Source of the DNA: Parafrankia discariae | GTDB taxonomy: Bacteria > Actinomycetota > Actinomycetes > Frankiales > Frankiaceae | Direction: 5' to 3' | Length of the DNA: 57,849 nucleotides | Assembly: GCF_000373365.1 (NCBI RefSeq) | Contig: NZ_KB891225.1 | Location: 1 to 57,849 of the forward strand | Part shown: in pieces, positions 1,969-57,849 of the stretch | Layout: every line of letters starts with the position of its first letter | Numbering within the stretch: position 1 is the first letter of the stretch | Position numbers and translations under genes: made by a program | Notes under the pieces: generated by a model | Told to the model about the DNA's origin: nothing | The model's input: the letters and a program-made list of their open reading frames with translations, nothing else | Databases searched by the model: none

Positions 1969-2532
1969 GAAAATATGATGGGGGTGCCCACCCCCGAAGA
2001 CGCCGCTGCCGCCCTGGCCGAGGCGGAGACCTCACGGGCGCAGTTGGCCGGCGGCCTCGGACTGCCGTCCTTCTTCCACAGCTCGATCGGCGTCACCGTG
2101 GCTGTCCAGATCGCCGTAGCCGCCGTGGAGGTCGCCTTCGACACCGGCTGGACCCGACTGCTGGCGATCGCCGGAGCCGCCGTCTTCGCCCTGACGGCGG
2201 GCATCCAGCTGCTCCGGTTCCGGCGGCTCAACGGGGTGTGGATCGGGGGACTCACGAGCCGGGTCGTGTTCGGAACGGGGCAGGCCGCGGCGACCTCGTA
2301 CGCGCTGGCTCTGGGCGCCGCGTTCTGGGCCGCCCTCGCCGGGGTGTGGTGGCTGGTGGCTGTCTGCGCGTGCGCTGGAGGACTGGCCTACACGTTGAGC
2401 GGCCGACGTTGGCTGCGCCGCTACCGAGGAGACCCGGCGACGCACGCTCGGGCCGAGTCGGCCGGGTGGCTGGTGGTCGTCTCGGTCCTCGCGCTGGCCG
2501 CGCTGGCGCTGCTGGGGCTGGTCGGCGGCTGA
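1966..2532 (+). CDS. Small multi-pass membrane protein
   Basis: A 188-residue protein I do not recognise by name. A 35-residue hydrophilic N-terminus is followed by about five hydrophobic segments: near IGVTVAVQIAVAAVEV, LLAIAGAAVFALTAG, AAFWAALAGVWWLVAV, CACAGGLAYTL and a C-terminal VVVSVLALAALALLGL. A positively charged loop (GRRWLRRYRG) precedes the last helix. ATGs at 1966, 1975 and 1978 are possible starts; the first lies inside a 35-bp palindrome and none has a good Shine-Dalgarno, so a leaderless message is plausible. Its stop overlaps the next start (TGATG at 2530), so it is translationally coupled to a transcriptional regulator. Such regulator/membrane-protein pairs often sense envelope or metabolic states. 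Confidence 0.7.
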   Translation: MENMMGVPTPEDAAAALAEAETSRAQLAGGLGLPSFFHSSIGVTVAVQIAVAAVEVAFDTGWTRLLAIAGAAVFALTAGIQLLRFRRLNGVWIGGLTSRVVFGTGQAAATSYALALGAAFWAALAGVWWLVAVCACAGGLAYTLSGRRWLRRYRGDPATHARAESAGWLVVVSVLALAALALLGLVGG

Positions 2533-3074
2533 TGCCCGAGCTGGACGCCAACCTGCACGCCCCGGCCCGGCTGAGGCTGATGACCATGCTGACCGCCGTG
2601 TCCGAGGCGGAGTTCTCGACCATTCGCGACAGCCTCCAGGTCAGCGACTCGGTGCTTTCCAAACACGTGGGCGCCCTCGCGTCGCTCGGCTACGTCAGGA
2701 GCCGCAAAGGAGTTCACGGCGGTCGCCGAACCACGTGGATCTCGCTGGCCGGGCCGGGCCGGGCCGCCCTGAGCACCCACGTCGCCGCACTGCGAGAGGT
2801 CATCGCCGGGGAGCACGCTGATCTGGATCGCCGCACTGACCATCAGGACGCGGCGGGTCCGCTGCGGAACCGGCTCCCCGAGCTGCGGGCCGCGCGGCGC
2901 TGGAGCCAGGCGGACCTGGCCGACCGCCTCGACGTGTCCAGCCAGACGGTCGACGCCATCGAAACGGGCCGCCTCGCCCCGCGCCTGCCCCTGGCGTTCA
3001 AGATCGCCGCCGTGTTCGAGGGCCGGATCGAAGACCTGTTCTTCCCCTCCGAGGACATCGGCACCGAGGCCTGA
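2532..3074 (+). CDS. Transcriptional regulator with two DNA-binding domains (winged helix + XRE)
   Basis: A 180-residue protein. Residues 1 to about 95 form a winged helix of the MarR/ArsR-like HTH_27 type (LHAPARLRLMTMLTAVSEAE, then SDSVLSKHVGALASLGYV and a wing with GGRRTTWISL). Residues from about 112 form an XRE/Cro-type HTH close to YozG/YgzD proteins (LRAARRWSQADLADRL, VSSQTVDAIETG, then a helix ending in IEDLFF). Each of these two families is usually a stand-alone regulator next to a membrane protein; here they are fused. The start overlaps the stop of the membrane-protein gene. The palindrome at 1934-1968 is the likely operator. Confidence 0.8.
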   Translation: MPELDANLHAPARLRLMTMLTAVSEAEFSTIRDSLQVSDSVLSKHVGALASLGYVRSRKGVHGGRRTTWISLAGPGRAALSTHVAALREVIAGEHADLDRRTDHQDAAGPLRNRLPELRAARRWSQADLADRLDVSSQTVDAIETGRLAPRLPLAFKIAAVFEGRIEDLFFPSEDIGTEA

Positions 3075-3226
3075 TCGTCCGGGCCGCCCCGCAGCCGCTC
3101 TGCGTCCTCCTCTGACGAACACCCGGCATGGCCGGCCCCGCGTGCCAGGCCGCGAGCGTCAGGACCAGGCCCCGGCCCTCGCTCGTCATCCGCACCTCGT
3201 CCTCGACGAACACCCGGTGGTACGCC

Positions 3227-4678
3227 CTACGTCGGTGCCTGGAAGCCGCCGATCTTGCGTTCGAGCAGTTCGGCCAGCCGCAGCGGGGTGCGGTCCTCGA
3301 ACATCGGGCCGATGAGCTGCACTCCCACCGGCAGGCCCTCGGGGGACCGGCCCGCGGGTATCGCGGTGGCCGGCAGGCCCGGCATGGTGGCCAGGCCGGC
3401 CAGGACGAGCTGGTCGAAGTACGGGTACTCGACGCCGTCGATGTCGATCCGGCGTTCCAGCGGATTGGGGTTGTGGTCGTGACCGAACGCGGGAGTCGGC
3501 GTGATCGGACACACCACGGCGTCGAACTCGGCGAACAGCTGCCGCCAGCCGTGGCGGTGGAGCTCGCGACGGTTGTTCGCCTCGATCCAGTCGCGGTGGC
3601 TGAACACCATGGCGCGCAGCCGCGCCGCGTTGAGACTCCGGTCGTCCGCGCTCAGCCCGGCGGCGCGGGTCCGCAGCTGCTCGTACGCCTCGACGGGAAA
3701 ACGCGCAACGGAGCCCGAGAACAGCAACTGCGTGTAGAGCGTCGCGGCTTCGGTCAGATCGGGCAGCAGCGGAGTGTGCCGTTCGACGCGGGCTCCTCCG
3801 TCGACAAGCGCGTCGGCCACCCGGTGCACGCCCGCCCGCACAGCGGACCCGGTCGGAATGAGCGGGTGCTCGTCGAGGACCAGGACCCGGAAGTCGGCGA
3901 GGCGCTCGTGGCGCGCGGGCGGCAGCGCCACGTTGTGCGCCACGCCGAGCGTCAGCGGGTCCGGTCCGGCCATGACGTCGAGCAGGAGGGTGAGGTCGCG
4001 GGCAGTGCGCGCCATCGGACCGACGACGGCGAGGTCGAAGTCGGTCGGCAATGGCGGCGCGGGAGGCGCGACCATGCCGCGGCTCGCCGCCAGCCCGAGT
4101 GTCGGCTTGTGCGCGTAGACGCCGCAGAAATGCGCGGGGGTGCGCAGCGAACCGGCGAGGTCGGAGGCGATGGACAGCGCACCGAACCCGGACGCCAGGG
4201 CCGCCGCCGATCCACCGGAGGAGCCGCCCGGCGTGCGATCGTGATCCCACGGGTTGTTGGTGGTGCCGTAGATCTCGTTGAAGCTCTGGATATCTTGCAG
4301 CCCCAACGGGACGTTGGTCTTGCCGAGCACCACCGCGCCCGCGGCCCTGAGTCGCGACACCTGTACCGCGTCCTCGGCCGGCAGGTAGTTCGTGTGCTGC
4401 GGCATACCCCAGGTCGTGGGCAGCCCGGCGATGTTGTAGGACTCTTTGACCGTCACCGGAATGCCGAGCAGCGGCCGGTCCTCGCCGCGGGCGCGCGCCT
4501 GGTCGGCGCCGCGCGCGGCGTCCCGCGCGCGGTCGAAGTCCGGCACGCAGATCGCGTTGATCACCTTGTCGTCCCGCTCGATACGGGCGATCGCCTCGTC
4601 GGTCAGCTCCGCCGAGGTCACGTCACCGGCACGCAACGCGGCCGCGAGCTCTTCGGCTGACTGAAAACTCCACTCCAT
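3227..4678 (-). CDS. Amidase (amidase-signature family)
   Basis: A 483-residue protein of the usual amidase length. The Ser-cisSer-Lys triad of the family is visible: Lys78 in GIPVTVKES, the glycine/serine signature TPGGSSGGSAA with serines 153, 154 and 157, and the nucleophile Ser177 in SDLAGSLRTPA. The enzyme should hydrolyse carboxylic amides in the cytoplasm; no signal peptide is seen. A frame extension up to 4810 exists, but the ATG at 4678 starts exactly where the family does (MEWSFQSAEELAAALRAG). It is divergent from the defective aldo/keto reductase gene. Substrate is unknown: GatA activity is unlikely without gatB/gatC neighbours. Confidence 0.9.
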   Translation of the reverse strand: MEWSFQSAEELAAALRAGDVTSAELTDEAIARIERDDKVINAICVPDFDRARDAARGADQARARGEDRPLLGIPVTVKESYNIAGLPTTWGMPQHTNYLPAEDAVQVSRLRAAGAVVLGKTNVPLGLQDIQSFNEIYGTTNNPWDHDRTPGGSSGGSAAALASGFGALSIASDLAGSLRTPAHFCGVYAHKPTLGLAASRGMVAPPAPPLPTDFDLAVVGPMARTARDLTLLLDVMAGPDPLTLGVAHNVALPPARHERLADFRVLVLDEHPLIPTGSAVRAGVHRVADALVDGGARVERHTPLLPDLTEAATLYTQLLFSGSVARFPVEAYEQLRTRAAGLSADDRSLNAARLRAMVFSHRDWIEANNRRELHRHGWRQLFAEFDAVVCPITPTPAFGHDHNPNPLERRIDIDGVEYPYFDQLVLAGLATMPGLPATAIPAGRSPEGLPVGVQLIGPMFEDRTPLRLAELLERKIGGFQAPT

Positions 4679-4770: not shown

Positions 4771-5763
4771 GGGGCGACGCCAGGATTCTGGTGGGGGTAC
4801 GTCTGGGCAAACGGACTCGACGAGGAAGCCAGCCGCCCTCTGATCAGGCACGCGCTCGAAGCGGGGATCAACTTCTTCGACACCGCCAACCTGTACTCCT
4901 ACGGCTCCAGCGAGGAGATCCTCGGCCGCGCGCTGAAGGACCAGGCCGACCGCGACGACGTCGTCATCACCACCAAGGTCCGCCACACGATGCGCCCGGG
5001 TCGCCCCAACGGCGGCGGCCTGTCCCGCAAGGCGATCATGACCGAGATCGACGCCAGCCTGCGCCGCCTGGGCACCGACCACGTCGACGTCTACATGATC
5101 CACCGCCTCGACACCGACACCCCCCTGGAGGAGACCCTGGAAGCCCTGAACGACGTGGTGCGGGCCGGCAAGGCCCGCTACCTCGGCGCCTCCTCCATGC
5201 ACGCCTGGGAATTCGCCAACGCCCTGCACCTGCAGGAACGTCACAACTGGGCCCGCTTCGTCACGATGCAGAACCACTACAACCTCCTCGCCCGCGAGGA
5301 GGAACGGGAAATGCTCCCCCTGTGCGCCGCCGAAGGCATCGCCACCACGGTGTGGAGCCCGCTCGCCCGCGGCCGCCTCGCCCGCCCCTTCGACCAGGCA
5401 CACACCGGCGTCCGCGCGGCCACCGACGGCGGCTACGCCGACCTGCTCTACCAGGCCGACGCCGAGGGCGACCGCCAGATCATCGACGAGGTCGGCGCCA
5501 TCGCCCGGACCCGCGGCGTCAGCCGCGCCCAGGTCGCCCTGAGCTGGCTGCGCCGCAATCCCGTCGTGGCCGCGCCACTGGTCGGCGCCCGGACGATCCG
5601 GCAGATCGACGACGCCGTGGCCTCCCTCGACCTCGACCTCACCGACGAGGAAACCCGCCGCCTGGAACTCCCCTACACCCCGCGCCACGATTTCCAGGCA
5701 GTCTCCGACCCGGCGGAACTGGAACGCATCAAAGCCGGCATCCCCGGCTACGCGAACGTCTGA
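4771..5763 (+). pseudogene. Aldo/keto reductase, 5'-truncated
   Basis: From about 4801 the frame encodes an NADPH-dependent aldo/keto reductase of the YajO/Tas type. The tetrad is present: Asp in FFDTAN (codon 4879), Tyr (4894), Lys in ITTKV (4975) and His in IHR. The C-terminus looks complete. Reading back, the frame closes at a TGA (4768-4770) and holds no ATG, GTG or TTG before the ATG at 4990, which lies after three of the four catalytic residues. The usual first 30-40 residues (first beta strand and barrel entry) are missing, and the divergent amidase start at 4678 leaves no room for them. I call it a truncated gene; a short product from 4990 would be inactive. Confidence 0.7.
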
Positions 5764-48237: not shown

Positions 48238-50364
48238 TCAGGTGACCTGCCAGATCCGGGCGGTCCGGTCGTCGCTGCCCGTGGCGAGCAGCCTGCCGTC
48301 AGGAGAGAAGGTCACGGCGTTGACCTCGTCGTCGTGCTCGGCGAGCTTCGTGACCCGGGTCCAGCCCGACGTGCTCCACAGATGGGCCTTCTCGTCGGCG
48401 GCCGCCGTCGCGAGCAGGCTGCCGTCCGGGGAGAACTCGGCGTCGTAGACGCCGTCGGCGTGCCGCAGCGCGCTCACCTGCCGTCCGCCGCCGACCTCCC
48501 AGATCCGGGCCGTCTCGTCGTCGCTCGCGGTCGCCAGCAGCCGTCCGTCCGGGGTGAACGCCGTGCCGTAGACCCAGTGGGCGTGCCCGCGCAGCACCGC
48601 GGTCGTCCGGCCGGTCCGCAGGTTCCACAGCCGTGCCTCGTGGTAACTCGTGCTGGCCAGCAGCGAGCCGTCCGGCGAAAAACTGATCTTCTGGACGTCC
48701 GACGGGTGCCCGGTGAGCGTCGCGACGAAGCGTCCCGTCGCCATGTCCCACAGCCGGACGGTGTCGTCGTCGCTGCCGGTGGCGAGCAGCCGCCCGTCCG
48801 GGGAGAACGCGACTCCGTTGACCCCGCCGCCGTGCCCGGCCAGGACGAAGCGCTGCGCCCCGGTGAGCGGGTCCCACACCCGGACCTTCTTCTTGTCGCT
48901 GACCGAGGCCAGCAGCTCCCCGGCAGGCGAGAACCGCACACCGCGGACGCAGTCCTTGTGCCCGACGATCGTCGTGCGCACCGAGCCGGTCGGGACGTCC
49001 CAGATCCGCACGGTCTCGTCGTCGCTCGCGGTCGCGAGCAGGCGCCCGTCCGGGGAGAACGCGACATCGTTGACGGTGTCCTCGTGCCCGGTGAGGGTGA
49101 CGGCGACCCGGACGGCCCACGCGGTTCCCTCGGTGATGCGCGCGTTCGCCGGGGAGCGGCTGACAGCCGGGCGTGTTGATCGTGCTTCGGGCGACGGCGA
49201 GGTGGCCGGCGGTGCCGCGACCGGCGGTGCCGCAGCCAGCGGTGTGGCGGCCGGTGGTGTGGCGGCCGGCGGTGCCGCGACCGGCGGCTTGGTCAGCGCG
49301 CCCAGCGCGACGACGAGCTTGGGATCGCCGCTCGTGGTGGGCAGCATCCCGACGGCGGTGGTGACGGCCGCCGTGACCCGGGGGATGCGGGTGGAGCCAC
49401 CGGTCAGGTAGACCGCGGCGAGGGCGCCGGGTTCGAGGCCGGCGGTGTGCACGGCGCGGCGCAGCTCGACGGCGGTGCCGTCGAGTGCGGGGGCGACGGC
49501 CTCCTCGAACTCGGCGCGGGTGACCCGGATCCCCTCCTCGACACCGTCGAGATAGTCGTCCAGGTAGAGCGTGTGCGTGGGCCGGTCGGACAGTTCGTGC
49601 TTCGCCTTCACGATCTCCTCGCGGATCTTCGTCCGGGTGCGGCGGGCCCGCCGGCCGTCACCGGCCCACAGCTCGTCCCAGGCGCGCCGGGCCTGGTCCG
49701 GGAGATGTCCGGCCACGAGATCCAGCAGCATCGCGTCGACGTCCTCGCCGCCGAAGTGCGGGTCTCCCCCGGTGCCGCGCACCTCGTAGCCGCCGGCGGT
49801 GCGCCGCAGCACCGCCGTGTCGAACGTGCCACCACCCAGGTCGTAGACGGCGGCGTGCCGTCCGAGCGGCACCCCGTCCGTCGCGGCCGCCGTGTAGAAG
49901 ACGGCGGCGGCGACCGGCTCGGGAAGGAACCGCGGGGCCGGCAGCCCGCCGCGGGCCGCGGCCAGACCGAGACGGTCGACCTCCCGCCGCCCCCAGGCGG
50001 CCGGGTGGGTCAGGACGACCGCGCCCGCCGGCCGCCCGTTGAACCGCCGGGTGGCCTCCCGGGCGACCCGGGCCAGCACGGCGGCGACCAGGTCGACGGT
50101 GGGGATGTCCTGGCCGCCCAGACGCACGGTGTCCGCGGTGACGAGCGCCCGCTTCGGCAGCCGCTCCGCGCGTTCCGGGAACACCGCCGCCTGGCTGGCC
50201 GCCGCCCGTCCGGTGAGGACCTGCCCGTCGTCGTCCAGACAGACCACCGAGGGCAGCGACCTGCTGCCGTCGATCTCCAGTGCCTCCGGCGCGCCACCGG
50301 CGGACGCGGTGGCGGCCGCCGTGTAGGTGGTGCCGAAATCAACGGCCAGGGACCAGTCGGCCAC
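48238..50364 (-). CDS. Hsp70-type ATPase fused to a seven-blade WD40 propeller
   Basis: A 708-residue protein, paralogue of the one at 38205-40418. The ATPase part shows LAVDFGTTYTAAAT, YDLGGGTFDTAVL and VYLTGGSTRIPRV. A linker of Pro-Ala-Ala repeats (about residues 355-395) leads to seven WD40 repeats, all well kept (FSPDGRLLATASDDETVRIW and similar). It starts with GTG at 50364 behind aaggagagg. It is the first gene of an operon with the cyclase-homology protein. With the other two Hsp70 genes it encloses the GTPase operon. Confidence 0.9.
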   Translation of the reverse strand: MADWSLAVDFGTTYTAAATASAGGAPEALEIDGSRSLPSVVCLDDDGQVLTGRAAASQAAVFPERAERLPKRALVTADTVRLGGQDIPTVDLVAAVLARVAREATRRFNGRPAGAVVLTHPAAWGRREVDRLGLAAARGGLPAPRFLPEPVAAAVFYTAAATDGVPLGRHAAVYDLGGGTFDTAVLRRTAGGYEVRGTGGDPHFGGEDVDAMLLDLVAGHLPDQARRAWDELWAGDGRRARRTRTKIREEIVKAKHELSDRPTHTLYLDDYLDGVEEGIRVTRAEFEEAVAPALDGTAVELRRAVHTAGLEPGALAAVYLTGGSTRIPRVTAAVTTAVGMLPTTSGDPKLVVALGALTKPPVAAPPAATPPAATPLAAAPPVAAPPATSPSPEARSTRPAVSRSPANARITEGTAWAVRVAVTLTGHEDTVNDVAFSPDGRLLATASDDETVRIWDVPTGSVRTTIVGHKDCVRGVRFSPAGELLASVSDKKKVRVWDPLTGAQRFVLAGHGGGVNGVAFSPDGRLLATGSDDDTVRLWDMATGRFVATLTGHPSDVQKISFSPDGSLLASTSYHEARLWNLRTGRTTAVLRGHAHWVYGTAFTPDGRLLATASDDETARIWEVGGGRQVSALRHADGVYDAEFSPDGSLLATAAADEKAHLWSTSGWTRVTKLAEHDDEVNAVTFSPDGRLLATGSDDRTARIWQVT

Positions 50365-53457: not shown

Positions 53458-54019
53458 CCCAATGGTTGTGAACTACCGCAGGCACAGCTGTGTGAGCCCG
53501 GGTGTGCTGGAACGTTTGCACCTTGGCCGGTTAGCCGGCCCGCCAACACGTACGCACCTTGAGGTGCCCGCAGAGGTGCCCGCCCGCCCGCACACTCGGG
53601 TGCCGGTGAGTTAGCCCGCAGGTGAGCGCAGGTGCCAGCGGACACGTAACCCACCGTTCGGGCAACGGTGCCATCCCGTGTGGTGGGGAAGTGGCGGGCA
53701 CGTGTGACGGCGCGGCCGCGGGCCCGAAGGCCCGCCCGGGTCCCGCCCCGAGTTCAGCCCCGGGTGTTGGCCACTTCGTGGCCATGCGGTCAGGGAACAG
53801 GGGAGGCCCGTGTTCACGCCCGCCGTCCCGCCAGGGGGCGTGGCCGGGACGCGGCCAACACGCCGCCCAGGGCGTCTGCGGACTTAGCTGCCCGTTCCTT
53901 TACACTTGGGCCCGCCCTGGACCCCCAAAACCTGTTGGCCCGCGTTGGCACCCTCGTGGGAGTCGACCGGTGGGCCCGGTGGGGGAGAGGGAGCCGCGAC
54001 GGAAGGGAACGCAGGACAC
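53458..54019. other. Non-coding region upstream of parA
   Basis: About 560 bases with many short imperfect repeats (ggtgcccgc, gtgagcgcaggtg, gggcac) but no convincing gene. Frames here are Cys-, His- and Trp-rich on both strands, which is unlike protein from this genome. It likely holds the promoter of the parAB operon and perhaps origin sequences. Confidence 0.45.
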
Positions 54020-54979
54020 GTGACAACGGACCCGTTTGCACGGCCGGCCGAGGTCGTCTTCCCGCACGAGCACCTTGAGCACGTGATAGCCGTGGCCAAC
54101 GGCAAAGGGGGAGTCGGGAAGACCACCCTCACCACCAACATCGCCGCCCTGGTGGCCGCCGGTGGTGGCCGCGTCCTCGTCATCGACGTCAACGCGCAGG
54201 GCAACTGCGGAGAAGACCTCGGCTACACGGCGCAGCCGGACAAGGACGACGACGGTAAAGGGCTGGTCGACGCCGTCCGCTACGGAACGCCGCTCGTTCC
54301 CGTCCGCGACGTCCGGCCCGGCCTCGACGTCATCCCCGGCGGCGGGGAGATCCGCCAGCTCCCCACCCACCTGTACAACATGTTCGCCGAGACCGGGGAG
54401 CTCGGCACCCTCGCGCTGGCCCGTTCGCTGCTGCCGATCGCCGGCGACTACGACCTGATCCTGATCGACAGCCCGCCCGAGAACCGGCCGCTGCTGCAGC
54501 TCGTCCTGGGCGCCGCCCACTGGCTGCTCATCCCGATCAAGAGCGACGACTCGTCCCGCAAGGGCATGCAGCAGGTCGCCTACGAGTTCGCCCGGATGCG
54601 CCGGGTGAACCCCACCCTCGACCTGCTCGGCGTCGTCCTGTTCGCCGCCGGGACCAGCGCCCGCCGCATCCGCGAGGAGGTCCGCCGCGACGTCATCGAC
54701 GACCTCGGCGGCAAGGACGTCATGTTCGACACGATCATCCGCCACGCCGAGGCCTCGGCCCGCGACGCCCGCCGCCGCGGGCAGCCCTTCCACGAACTGG
54801 AAGCCGCCGCCGCCTCCGGCCCGACCCCGTTCGACGTCCTGCGCGGGAAGGCCGACCGCTCGCAGATGATCGCCGGCACGGCGGGCGCGGTCGCCGGCGA
54901 CCTGGCCGCGCTGACCCGGGAGATCCTCACCCGCCGTCAGGTGCTGCTGAACGAGCTCGAAGCCGTGGCGGCCCCGTGA
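54020..54979 (+). CDS. parA: ParA-type partition ATPase
   Basis: A 319-residue deviant Walker ATPase: KGGVGKTT (residues 29-36) with the signature lysine, VLVIDVNAQGNCGEDLG as Walker A', and YDLILIDSPPENRPLL as Walker B. The usual D-x-D-P-Q-G is D-V-N-A-Q-G here. No N-terminal HTH is present, as in type Ib ParA proteins. It should form ATP-dependent gradients on the nucleoid that move DNA bound by its partner. The GTG at 54020 is preferred; the frame is open to 53906. It overlaps the next gene (TGATG at 54977). The copy may belong to a plasmid or integrative element. Confidence 0.9.
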   Translation: MTTDPFARPAEVVFPHEHLEHVIAVANGKGGVGKTTLTTNIAALVAAGGGRVLVIDVNAQGNCGEDLGYTAQPDKDDDGKGLVDAVRYGTPLVPVRDVRPGLDVIPGGGEIRQLPTHLYNMFAETGELGTLALARSLLPIAGDYDLILIDSPPENRPLLQLVLGAAHWLLIPIKSDDSSRKGMQQVAYEFARMRRVNPTLDLLGVVLFAAGTSARRIREEVRRDVIDDLGGKDVMFDTIIRHAEASARDARRRGQPFHELEAAAASGPTPFDVLRGKADRSQMIAGTAGAVAGDLAALTREILTRRQVLLNELEAVAAP

Positions 54980-55680
54980 TGGACGAGCAGCAGCAGACTG
55001 AGAACGGCGTGGGGGCTCCGCGCCGGATGCCCGCCCAGGACCTGGGCCAGCTGTTCGCCCGGCCGGATCGCACGGCGGACCTGGGGGCGCTGGCCCGGCG
55101 CCGGCCCGCCCCGCGCCCGGCCCCGGCACCCGCACCGGCTGTCGAGGGCGTGCCCGCCGAGCCGCGCCCGGCCCTGGCACCCGTGCCCGTTCCCGTGGAG
55201 CGCGCTGACAACGGTCCCGCGATTCCCGAAGCCAGGATCCAGGCACACGTCACCCCTGTCCCGGCCCCCGTCGACATCCCCGAGGCCGGTAGGGGCGATC
55301 TGTCGCCGACCGGGACGGTGCGCATCACCGCCATCCTGGTCAGCCCCACCGTCTCCCGACGGCTGGAGGAGTACCGGCGGGCGAAGAAGGGCCGCACGAA
55401 CACGTCGATCGTGCTGGAGGCGCTGGACGAGTGCCACGGCCGGATCCCCGAGCTCGTCGCCCAGGCGAGGGCCGCCGCCCAGCCCCGTGGGTCGTTGTTC
55501 CCGGCCCGGGACGACCATCTGCGCCTGCCGGGGGGTGGCGGCATCCAGGTCCAGATCCGCCCGACGCTCGCCCAGCTGAACGTCATCGACCGGCTTTCGC
55601 GTGAGCACCGGCTCGAAAGCCGCTCCCAGCTCGCCGCGGCCGTCCTGAACGAGTTCCTCCCCGGCCGCAAGGACCGCTGA
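54979..55680 (+). CDS. ParB-like centromere-binding protein (ribbon-helix-helix type)
   Basis: A 233-residue protein. The N-terminal 110 residues are Pro/Ala-rich and probably disordered (PAPRPAPAPAPA), a usual place for the ParA-activating arginine finger (RRMPAQDLGQLF is near the start). Two possible ribbon-helix-helix or helical units follow: VRITAILVSPTVSRRLEEYR with TNTSIVLEALDECH, and IQVQIRPTLAQLNVIDRLSR with SRSQLAAAVLNEFL. It lacks the KorB/Spo0J HTH. The start overlaps the parA stop. The 12-bp arrays upstream of parA are the expected binding sites. Confidence 0.75.
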   Translation: MDEQQQTENGVGAPRRMPAQDLGQLFARPDRTADLGALARRRPAPRPAPAPAPAVEGVPAEPRPALAPVPVPVERADNGPAIPEARIQAHVTPVPAPVDIPEAGRGDLSPTGTVRITAILVSPTVSRRLEEYRRAKKGRTNTSIVLEALDECHGRIPELVAQARAAAQPRGSLFPARDDHLRLPGGGGIQVQIRPTLAQLNVIDRLSREHRLESRSQLAAAVLNEFLPGRKDR

Positions 55681-56723: not shown

Positions 56724-57274
56724 CGAGGATCCGACACCGCGGCGGTATCGCCGCGCGGGCCGCCGAGCTCCAACAACTACGCGCCGACGTGGACCGGCTG
56801 CGCGCACGGCGGAGCCTGAGCGCGGACCAATGGGATGCGTGGGCGCGGGGAACGGATCGATTCCACCTGGCGGTCCAGGACTTCTACGCTCCGTTCGACC
56901 AGGCCGCCAAAGCGCTACGGCGCGGGGAGGCCGACGGGGTCGAGACCGCCGTCCAGTTCCTGGAAGCCGATCCGTGGTGCTTTCGATCCGGCTACATGAA
57001 GGCCGAGCTGATGCACCGCCTCGCCAACGGCCCCGATCTGGACGCCCATCACCGTCGGCTCCACGACGTCGTGAGCAGGCGACTCACGGACCCGCAACCC
57101 CGCCTCCTGCGCCACGCCGCCCGTCTGGCCGCCGCCGTGTGGGACGACGACCTGCGCCGGCGCGTCGACCAGCTTCCGTGCCCCGAACCCGCCAGGCAGC
57201 ATCAGGTTCGGCTCTTCCTGCATTTCGTCGAACAACGGCTGCGGACCGAAGGCGGAACCGTTGCGGATCGATGA
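56720..57274 (+). CDS. Uncharacterised helical protein coupled to the LRR gene
   Basis: A 184-residue protein starting with a GTG that overlaps the LRR stop. It is almost all helical: a possible coiled coil at residues 8-35 (ARAAELQQLRADVDRLRARR), then FHLAVQDFYAPFDQAAKALR and LLRHAARLAAAVWDDDLRRR. No known domain is seen. Coupling with the LRR protein suggests a complex. Confidence 0.65.
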   Translation: MTRIRHRGGIAARAAELQQLRADVDRLRARRSLSADQWDAWARGTDRFHLAVQDFYAPFDQAAKALRRGEADGVETAVQFLEADPWCFRSGYMKAELMHRLANGPDLDAHHRRLHDVVSRRLTDPQPRLLRHAARLAAAVWDDDLRRRVDQLPCPEPARQHQVRLFLHFVEQRLRTEGGTVADR

Positions 57275-57291: not shown

Positions 57292-57582
57292 TCACGCCGC
57301 CGGCACTTGCGCGCCGGCACTCCTGGTCTGACCGGCCTTGGCCGTGCCAGGTTCCCGCTTCCCAGCCACCTGCCCGCTCGTGCGGGTCTTATGGTCGGCT
57401 CCACGGGCGTTTACGGTCTCCGACGTACTGGCGGCGACCTGGTGTCTGAGGTTGATCGCGGCGTTGTGGTCGCGGTCGGCCACCAGCCCGCAGGACTGGC
57501 AGCGGAACGTGCGGTCCGACAGCGTCAGGCTTGGGTTTCGCCAGCCGCAGCCGGAACAGGTCTTCGAGGACGGAGCACTGGT
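57292..57582 (-). pseudogene. tnpB: IS200/IS605-type tnpB, C-terminal exon
   Basis: The minus frame encodes the end of TnpB: PSSKTCSGCGW, then FRCQSCGLVADRDHNAAINL. This shows the four-Cys zinc ribbon (two CxxC pairs) and the third RuvC catalytic Asp in DRDHNAA. TnpB is an RNA-guided nuclease of IS605-type elements. The rest of the gene is not here: just before PSSKTC the sequence becomes the 3' end of a group II intron. The 5' part should lie beyond the right edge, on the other side of the intron. The guide (omega) RNA of such elements ends downstream of the tnpB stop at 57292. Confidence 0.8.
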
Positions 57583-57630
57583 GGGCCGCCGGCGAGGTAC
57601 CCGCGGGTGCGGGTCCTTTTCCGACGGCCC
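57583..57630 (-). ncRNA. Group II intron domain VI
   Basis: A 10-bp stem (57583-57592 with 57621-57630, one G-U pair) and an inner stem closed by ACCC form the hairpin expected right after domain V. The inner stem has an unpaired A on the 3' side, but it is farther from the intron end than a usual branch point, so lariat formation is uncertain. Confidence 0.6.
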
Positions 57631-57637
57631 CCAGCCC

Positions 57638-57671
57638 GAACGACGCATGCGACTTTCACCGCACGTCGCTC
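57638..57671 (-). ncRNA. Group II intron domain V
   Basis: Exactly 34 bases with the domain V layout: GAGC at the 5' end with the catalytic AGC triad, an 8-bp lower helix (one G-U pair) to CGTCGTTC at the 3' end, an upper GCG/CGC helix and the GTGAAAGT loop. It starts 8 bases after the stop of the intron-encoded protein, the normal position. Confidence 0.85.
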
Positions 57672-57679
57672 TCCGGTGA

Positions 57680-57849
57680 CTATGACGTGAGCTGCGGGAT
57701 CGGCTTTCCGGTGTGGATGGTGTCGTGGCAGGAACGGCAGACCACGAGGGTCTTGCGTCGCCGTCGTGCCATGTCGGCCGCCCATGCCGGCTGTGGTTGT
57801 CCCGGATATGCGAGTTCTGACAGCCGCCGGACGTGGTGCACGGTGATGC
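57680..57849 (-). CDS. ltrA: Group II intron reverse transcriptase/maturase, HNH endonuclease end (partial)
   Basis: The last 55 residues of a group II intron-encoded protein, entering from the right edge: ITVHHVRRLSEL, then WAADMARRRRKTLVVCRSCH and DTIHTGKPIPQL. This is the end of the HNH endonuclease domain with its His-His start and the CxxCH zinc/metal motif. It cuts the second DNA strand during retrohoming. The reverse-transcriptase and maturase domains are outside the window. Confidence 0.9.
   Translation of the reverse strand, partial: ITVHHVRRLSELAYPGQPQPAWAADMARRRRKTLVVCRSCHDTIHTGKPIPQLTS

What the first reader, a model, noticed from the sequence alone, without database searches (positions are those of the whole stretch)
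57292..57849. Group II intron inserted in tnpB at the zinc ribbon
Domain V, domain VI and the HNH tail of the intron protein are followed directly by the tnpB zinc-ribbon exon. One mobile element has entered another's nuclease gene just before the C-x-x-C motif. Splicing could restore TnpB; retained intron would give a nuclease without its RuvC-III and zinc ribbon.
Basis: partly seen in the sequence, partly recalled or inferred. Interest (0 to 1): 0.7.

Follow-up and report, generated by a model that had tools for sequence, protein, structure and literature searches.

The report
Group II intron inside IS607 tnpB
A self-splicing mobile intron whose close relatives live in one family of jumping-gene enzymes sits in the RNA-guided nuclease gene (tnpB) of an unrelated jumping gene, at a codon-exact position from which splicing should restore the nuclease.

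Summary
On the minus strand, intron domains V/VI and the HNH tail of the intron protein (57575-57849) run straight into the tnpB zinc-ribbon exon (57292-57574). One congener (G003) has this tnpB uninterrupted; another (G002) has the site without the IS607, where the C124 and C193 flanks meet. Ligated exons would read DRW-YPSSKTC in frame; unspliced, the junction makes a TAG stop. The same intron ends sit in ISL3 transposase genes elsewhere in this genome, and the five most similar named introns with a readable 5' junction are in ISL3 at the same codon. Intron-exon pairing (EBS1, supported by covariation over 14 introns) explains the shared target: both genes encode (A/G)DRW there. No second tnpB case was seen in capped surveys. 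The kind is known (group II introns in IS genes, e.g. RmInt1); the IS607 tnpB host and the likely ISL3-to-tnpB switch appear new. Splicing and mobility are predicted, not shown.

The parts
57575..57849 (-). 3' part of a group II intron (275 nt; the contig ends inside it)
   Evidence: RF00029; identical over 274 nt to C176:1-274, where it runs into an ISL3 transposase instead; 83% identical to the 3' end of a complete 2420-nt intron in G050
57575..57673 (-). Intron domains V and VI; the intron ends ...CCACCAGTGC
   Evidence: RF00029 full-length match; fold z -5.8
57680..57847 (-). C-terminal HNH (endonuclease) tail of the intron-encoded RT/maturase, with stop codon
   Evidence: PF21368; same tail in the complete 593-aa G050 protein
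57292..57574 (-). tnpB 3' exon: zinc ribbon, DRDHNAA motif (RuvC-III, label recalled), stop codon
   Evidence: PF07282 and IS607_TnpB model positions 348-424; 98% identical to uninterrupted tnpB in G003
57295..57361 (-). Transposase-2 RNA, probable guide (omega) RNA scaffold overlapping the end of tnpB
   Evidence: RF03015, 71.1 bits, gathering 42.7; same in G003 and C112. The omega-RNA role is inference
57256..57260 (.). Right end of the IS607 element
   Evidence: Gapped joins of the C124 and C193 flanks against the IS-free site of G002 score best for 57256-57259 with C193 1933-1936, equal within that range

Best explanation
A mobile, LtrA-like group II intron, whose nearest relatives sit in ISL3 transposase genes, retrohomed into the tnpB gene of an IS607 element because the two genes share the intron's RNA-read target (IBS2 GACC, IBS1 TGG(C/T)A, coding (A/G)DRW). 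The IS607 element is otherwise complete as far as seen: serine recombinase tnpA, both tnpB exons open, guide-RNA scaffold in the 3' exon. Splicing would give full-length TnpB; unspliced RNA stops at the junction (TAG) and lacks the zinc ribbon and RuvC-III. Shown: anatomy, boundaries, uninterrupted gene, IS-free site, shared target, EBS1/IBS1 covariation. Inferred: retrohoming as the route, the ISL3-to-tnpB direction, splicing in vivo, and the effect on nuclease activity.
For: 5' exon with intron start on C193: GACCGCTGGTA|GTGCGCC. Uninterrupted tnpB in G003, element 97.5% identical over 1688 bp on the left side and 98.4% over 317 bp on the right. IS-free site in G002 where the two flanks meet: joined flanks score 87 against it; best of 2000 joins with a random right flank 70, with a random left flank 77. 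Exon protein models abut and tnpA is an IS607 transposase, 208 bits, cut-off 110. The same 260-nt intron 5' end lies on C11 and C18 after ISL3 5' exons, and the same 274-nt 3' end on C176 before an ISL3 3' exon (C18 and C176 pieces checked against models). EBS1 found by covariation with IBS1 over 14 introns: mean 5.14 of 6 pairs; best of 200 exon shuffles 3.93. In this genome EBS1 reads TGCC before the contig ends and pairs with the TGGCA of ISL3 by standard pairs and with the TGGTA of tnpB through one G.T.
Against: About 1.86 kb of the intron (most of the protein gene) is missing from this assembly, so an intact intron protein is assumed from G050 and from the identical copies; three 5' ends but only two 3' ends were found. 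The intron ends in GC, not the usual AY (recalled rule). The base before EBS1 is A here: it pairs with T at +1 of tnpB but not with C at +1 of the ISL3 copy, which does not fit a simple ISL3-to-tnpB move. The 3' exon differs from G003 at +1, +4, +5 and +6 (all synonymous) and elsewhere in its 315 nt only at +52, +80 and one N, so the insertion was not a clean drop into a G003-like allele. Two of the 14 introns (L096, L100) pair poorly at EBS1, and EBS2 had no shuffle control. G002 also lacks parts of the flanks (57109-57224, C193 about 1991-4002). No RNA data.
Confidence: 0.86

Rival explanations
1. The intron is in place, but tnpB is effectively dead: splicing is too weak to matter and the intron only uses tnpB as a landing site.
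For: For RmInt1 in an IS transposase, less than 1% of exons are reported correctly spliced in vivo (PMC4238363, section 11 read). The ISL3 3' exons on C176 and in G050 read as frameshifted and the C11 ISL3 5' exon lacks a stretch present on C18, so host frames are not always kept.
Against: Both tnpB exons are open and close to the G003 copy, and the junction changes are all synonymous. The insertion looks recent, so intactness is weak evidence either way.
Confidence: 0.4
2. The intron came to this copy from another intron-bearing tnpB by homing or recombination, not directly from ISL3.
For: The cluster of synonymous changes at +1 to +6 resembles other tnpB alleles (G001 has CCCGTCC, this copy TCCGTCC) and lies in the stretch between the two strand cuts of LtrB-type homing (recalled). 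The base before EBS1 matches +1 T of tnpB.
Against: No other tnpB with this intron was seen in the 146 relatives or 393 class genomes, though only 4 and 2 candidates per genome were scored. The five most similar named introns with a readable junction are in ISL3.
Confidence: 0.3
3. Assembly artefact: the tnpB 3' fragment and the intron were joined by mistake.
For: All five intron ends found in this draft lie at contig ends.
Against: Both junctions are base-exact and in frame, carry the intron end motifs, and each agrees with the uninterrupted G003 gene; the outer flanks agree with the IS-free site in G002.
Confidence: 0.03

Closest known systems
RmInt1 in ISRm2011-2 (Sinorhizobium meliloti), PMC4238363
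   Same: Group II intron inside an IS transposase gene; splicing needed for the IS protein (abstract and section 11 read)
   Different: Host here is tnpB of IS607, an RNA-guided nuclease gene and not the transposase; the intron protein here has an HNH tail and is LtrA-like. That RmInt1 lacks an endonuclease domain is recalled
Ll.LtrB / LtrA (Lactococcus lactis)
   Same: Closest solved protein to the G050 relative: LtrA, 364 bits over residues 22-582 of 593; EBS1 near intron position 277 and EBS2 near 220, like LtrB (recalled)
   Different: Host gene (a relaxase gene in L. lactis, recalled) and target
IStrons (group I intron plus IS605/IS607 genes), PMC4227781
   Same: A ribozyme intron combined with IS607-type tnpA/tnpB (passages read)
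   Different: Group I intron, and there the IS genes are part of the composite element; here a group II intron with its own reverse transcriptase interrupts tnpB
ISL3-resident introns of Microbispora, Streptomyces, Nocardiopsis and Saccharopolyspora (L093, L094, L095, L101, L123)
   Same: Same intron lineage (76-100% identical to the G050 intron; L093 is G050 itself), same target codons, same GTGCGCC start
   Different: Host is the ISL3 transposase

Membership tests
Mobile group II intron, LtrA-like (IIA/ML, labels recalled) | Domain V/VI | tested here: met
   RF00029 above gathering score; fold z -5.8
Mobile group II intron, LtrA-like (IIA/ML, labels recalled) | GUGYG 5' end (recalled) | tested here: met
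   GTGCGCC at the 5' junctions on C193, C11, C18
Mobile group II intron, LtrA-like (IIA/ML, labels recalled) | 3' end AY (recalled) | tested here: not met
   Ends GC here and in G050 if the frame is to be restored, AC in L094 and L095, unclear in L123. I treat it as a usual, not a strict, feature
Mobile group II intron, LtrA-like (IIA/ML, labels recalled) | RT, maturase and HNH protein | tested here: inconclusive
   HNH tail present; RT and maturase seen only in the G050 relative, since the middle is unassembled here
Mobile group II intron, LtrA-like (IIA/ML, labels recalled) | EBS1-IBS1 pairing with the 5' exon | tested here: met
   Covariation over 14 relatives against 200 shuffles, 2 of 14 pairing poorly; this intron shows TGCC of EBS1 before the contig ends
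Mobile group II intron, LtrA-like (IIA/ML, labels recalled) | EBS2-IBS2 pairing | tested here: inconclusive
   GGTC faces GACC at the expected place; best column 4.2 of 5 pairs on average, no shuffle control run
Mobile group II intron, LtrA-like (IIA/ML, labels recalled) | Self-splicing and retrohoming | not testable with these tools
   Needs RNA and mobility assays
IS607 element | Serine recombinase TnpA plus TnpB | tested here: met
   NF033518 transpos_IS607 208 bits (cut-off 110); IS607_TnpB 418 bits on the 5' exon (cut-off 350) and 56 bits on the 3' exon, a fragment below the cut-off
IS607 element | Inserts at a GG/CC dinucleotide | tested here: inconclusive
   Best joins read GAACC-CTCGAC against GAACA-CTCGAC in G002; consistent with a CC core, but four neighbouring cut points score equally
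IStron | Group I intron fused with an IS | tested here: not met
   The intron is group II and interrupts tnpB

The most novel reading that the evidence does not exclude
The IS607 element has become a splice-gated RNA-guided nuclease system. TnpB is made only when the group II RNP splices its gene, while the guide RNA in the 3' exon is made either way. Intron and transposon then form a two-ribonucleoprotein composite, a group II counterpart of the IStron, which can spread both by retrohoming and by IS607 transposition.
Probability: 0.15. Interest if true: 0.75.

Novelty: new variant of a known kind. Interest (0 to 1): 0.48.

Why it matters
It shows how an RNA-guided retroelement can cross from one transposon family to another: two unrelated enzymes that encode the same short motif offer nearly the same RNA-read target. 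It also puts one RNA-guided element inside the gene of another, a natural test of whether splicing can control a TnpB nuclease. TnpB is thought to help IS elements persist (recalled), so the intron's splicing efficiency would bear on the transposon's survival.

Tried and rejected
Assembly artefact: rejected on the uninterrupted gene in G003 and the IS-free site in G002. IStron: rejected, wrong intron class. First guess for EBS1 near intron position 371: dropped after the covariation scan put it near 277. One search compared the 3' exons one base out of register and is superseded; its P value is not used. The ungapped join scan did not fix the IS ends (best 53 of 73 at several places); the gapped scan did, to within 4 bases. 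The pattern scan for such junctions in 393 class genomes was uninformative: at 3 mismatches it gave many chance hits, by eye about as many as its reversed control, and the list was cut; among listed rows only this genome's three junctions had 0-1 mismatch, and the known G050 junction was not reached. The plasmid search with the intron protein (capped at 5000 records) was not followed up locus by locus.

Searches for a second tnpB host gave none, within limits: 145 other genomes (4 first-look candidates scored per genome), 392 other class genomes overlapping the first set (2 scored per genome), 72,556 plasmid records with none covering 80% of the query, and viral contigs with one strict pattern. 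These reach only similar introns at this site. L099 was left out of the EBS covariation count (14 of 15 used), and 5 of the 15 junction loci (L098, L099, L104, L110, L121) were not assigned a host family.

Full report
What is in the window. On the minus strand of the last 558 bases, the HNH tail of an intron protein (57680-57847) is followed by group II domains V and VI (57575-57673) and then without a gap by the tnpB zinc-ribbon exon (57292-57574). The window is one complete contig, C124, and ends inside the intron.

The missing half. A search of the same genome with an intact TnpB from contig C112 found a second piece on C193 covering residues 1-351 of 443 at 80% identity; the window covers 350-442. 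C193 reads GACCGCTGGTA and then GTGCGCCATGAGG, a group II 5' end. In a congener, G003, the same gene runs uninterrupted as GACCGCTGGTA-CCCCAGCTCGAAGACC, and the rest of the element is 97.5% identical over 1688 bp on the C193 side and 98.4% over 317 bp on the C124 side. So the intron lies between TA and the last base of the Tyr codon of DRWYPSSKTC. Unspliced, the junction reads TGG TAG, an immediate stop.

One element, not two fragments. In G002 (contig C147, L177) the order is C124 57019-57108, C124 57225-57258, C193 1933-1990, C193 4003-4601, all on one strand. The two middle matches are short (34 and 58 bp; E 1.5e-5 and 2.3e-5), so I tested them. The two flanks joined at 57259/1936 align to the G002 site with a score of 87; 2000 joins with a random right flank reach at most 70, and 2000 with a random left flank at most 77. 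That is the IS607-free site, so C124 and C193 flank one insertion; the cut is fixed to within four bases. In G003, contig C136, C124 56284-56732 and C193 4392-4463 also abut in the same order and orientation. G002 lacks 57109-57224 and most of C193 1991-4002, so the region has changed in other ways too. The element carries an IS607 serine recombinase on C193:1306-1902(-), and both tnpB exons match the IS607 TnpB model at abutting positions, 2-346 and 348-424 of 431. A Transposase-2 RNA sits at the end of tnpB, as in the G003 and C112 copies; I take it as the guide RNA scaffold (inference). It lies wholly in the 3' exon, so its sequence does not depend on splicing.

Where the intron comes from. 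The intron's first 260 nt are identical on C193, C11 and C18, and its last 274 nt are identical on C124 and C176. That is three 5' ends and two 3' ends; a third 3' end was not found, and the middle of the intron is not in the pieces I read. C11 and C18 enter the intron from an ISL3 transposase 5' exon ending QVGDRW, and C176 leaves it into an ISL3 3' exon (the C18 and C176 pieces were checked against models). A complete 2420-nt relative in Microbispora amethystogenes (G050, L093) encodes a 593-aa RT/maturase/HNH protein and also sits in ISL3 at ADRW. Ten of these matched a transposase model: ISL3 in 5, IS5 in 3, IS701 in 1, IS3 in 1; as 5' fragments, five of the ten score below the whole-protein cut-off (L094, G050, L097, L100, L108). 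All five ISL3 hosts, and the C18 copy here, end at model position 208; the three IS5 hosts end at 224. Five junctions were not assigned a host family. The five ISL3-resident introns are the most similar to the G050 intron over most of their length, 76-100% (L093 being G050 itself).

Why tnpB. Scanning the aligned intron 5' regions for a stretch that pairs with each intron's own 5' exon picked one column: mean 5.14 of 6 pairs over 14 introns; the best of 200 shuffles of exons among introns was 3.93. Two of the 14 (L096, L100) pair poorly there. This is EBS1, near intron position 277. EBS2 (GGTC) lies near 220 and faces GACC, without a shuffle control. The visible part of EBS1 here, TGCC, pairs fully with ISL3 TGGCA and with tnpB TGGTA through one G.T pair. 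ISL3 and tnpB are unrelated proteins, but both encode (A/G)DRW here, and that gives the intron nearly the same DNA target.

Two loose ends. First, relative to G003, the 3' exon inside the IS (315 nt) differs at +1, +4, +5 and +6 (all synonymous) and then only at +52, +80 and one N; the last 500 nt of the 5' exon differ at three places, none nearer than -62. Such clustering is unlikely by chance (about 2 in a million by hand arithmetic: 4 or more of 6 changes in the first 6 of 315 nt). Other tnpB alleles carry similar letters there, so co-conversion from another tnpB is plausible. Second, the base before EBS1 is A here, which pairs with the T at +1 of tnpB but not with the C at +1 of the ISL3 copy. 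Both hint that the intron has a tnpB history longer than a single fresh hop. I did not resolve this.

What is known. Group II introns in IS transposase genes are an established kind: RmInt1 lies in ISRm2011-2 and is proposed to limit the spread of that IS by poor splicing (PMC4238363, abstract and section 11 read). IStrons pair group I introns with IS605/IS607 genes (PMC4227781, passages read). Ten searches of the open-access library were counted; one further attempt failed on its wording. Those that paired group II intron with tnpB, IS607, IS605, ISL3 or transposase terms showed, in the rows listed and in the passages opened, no group II intron inside tnpB. Searches listed 15 of 57 and 12 of 44 papers. 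Most listed papers were not opened, and the library omits most subscription journals, so absence from print is not established.

Verdict. A real, well-bounded insertion of a known kind of element into a new kind of host gene, with a clear RNA-pairing reason for the choice of target. Splicing, mobility and any effect on the nuclease remain predictions.

Noticed in passing
L006 (C176) 276-410 and 364-1101; L070 (G050) just after the intron: The ISL3 3' exons after the intron read as frameshifted in both genomes, unlike the tnpB exons, which stay open.
   Followed up: partly
L131 (C18) and L132 (C11), ISL3 5' exons: The C11 copy lacks a stretch with GVDDFA that the C18 copy has, and both hold the same run of ambiguous bases shortly before the intron.
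   Followed up: no
window 53906-55680 (+): A ParA-like ATPase gene followed by a small partition-like gene about 1.6 kb from the IS607 end, suggesting plasmid or integrative-element surroundings. Labels are from reading the translations; no search was made.
   Followed up: no
window 48238-50364 (-): 708-aa protein that reads as an Hsp70-like ATPase domain joined to WD40 repeats (by eye).
   Followed up: no
L031 6094-6313 (C29) and L036 8739-8958 (C147): 220 identical bases on the same strand near two contig ends, although the reverse transcriptase genes there face opposite ways; another intron in an inverted arrangement or an assembly chimera.
   Followed up: no
3' ends in L096, L097, L100: Introns in IS5 transposases seem to end ATC if the reading frame is to be restored (worked out by eye), different from AC or GC in the ISL3 lineage; the 3' splice site may vary among these introns.
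   Followed up: partly
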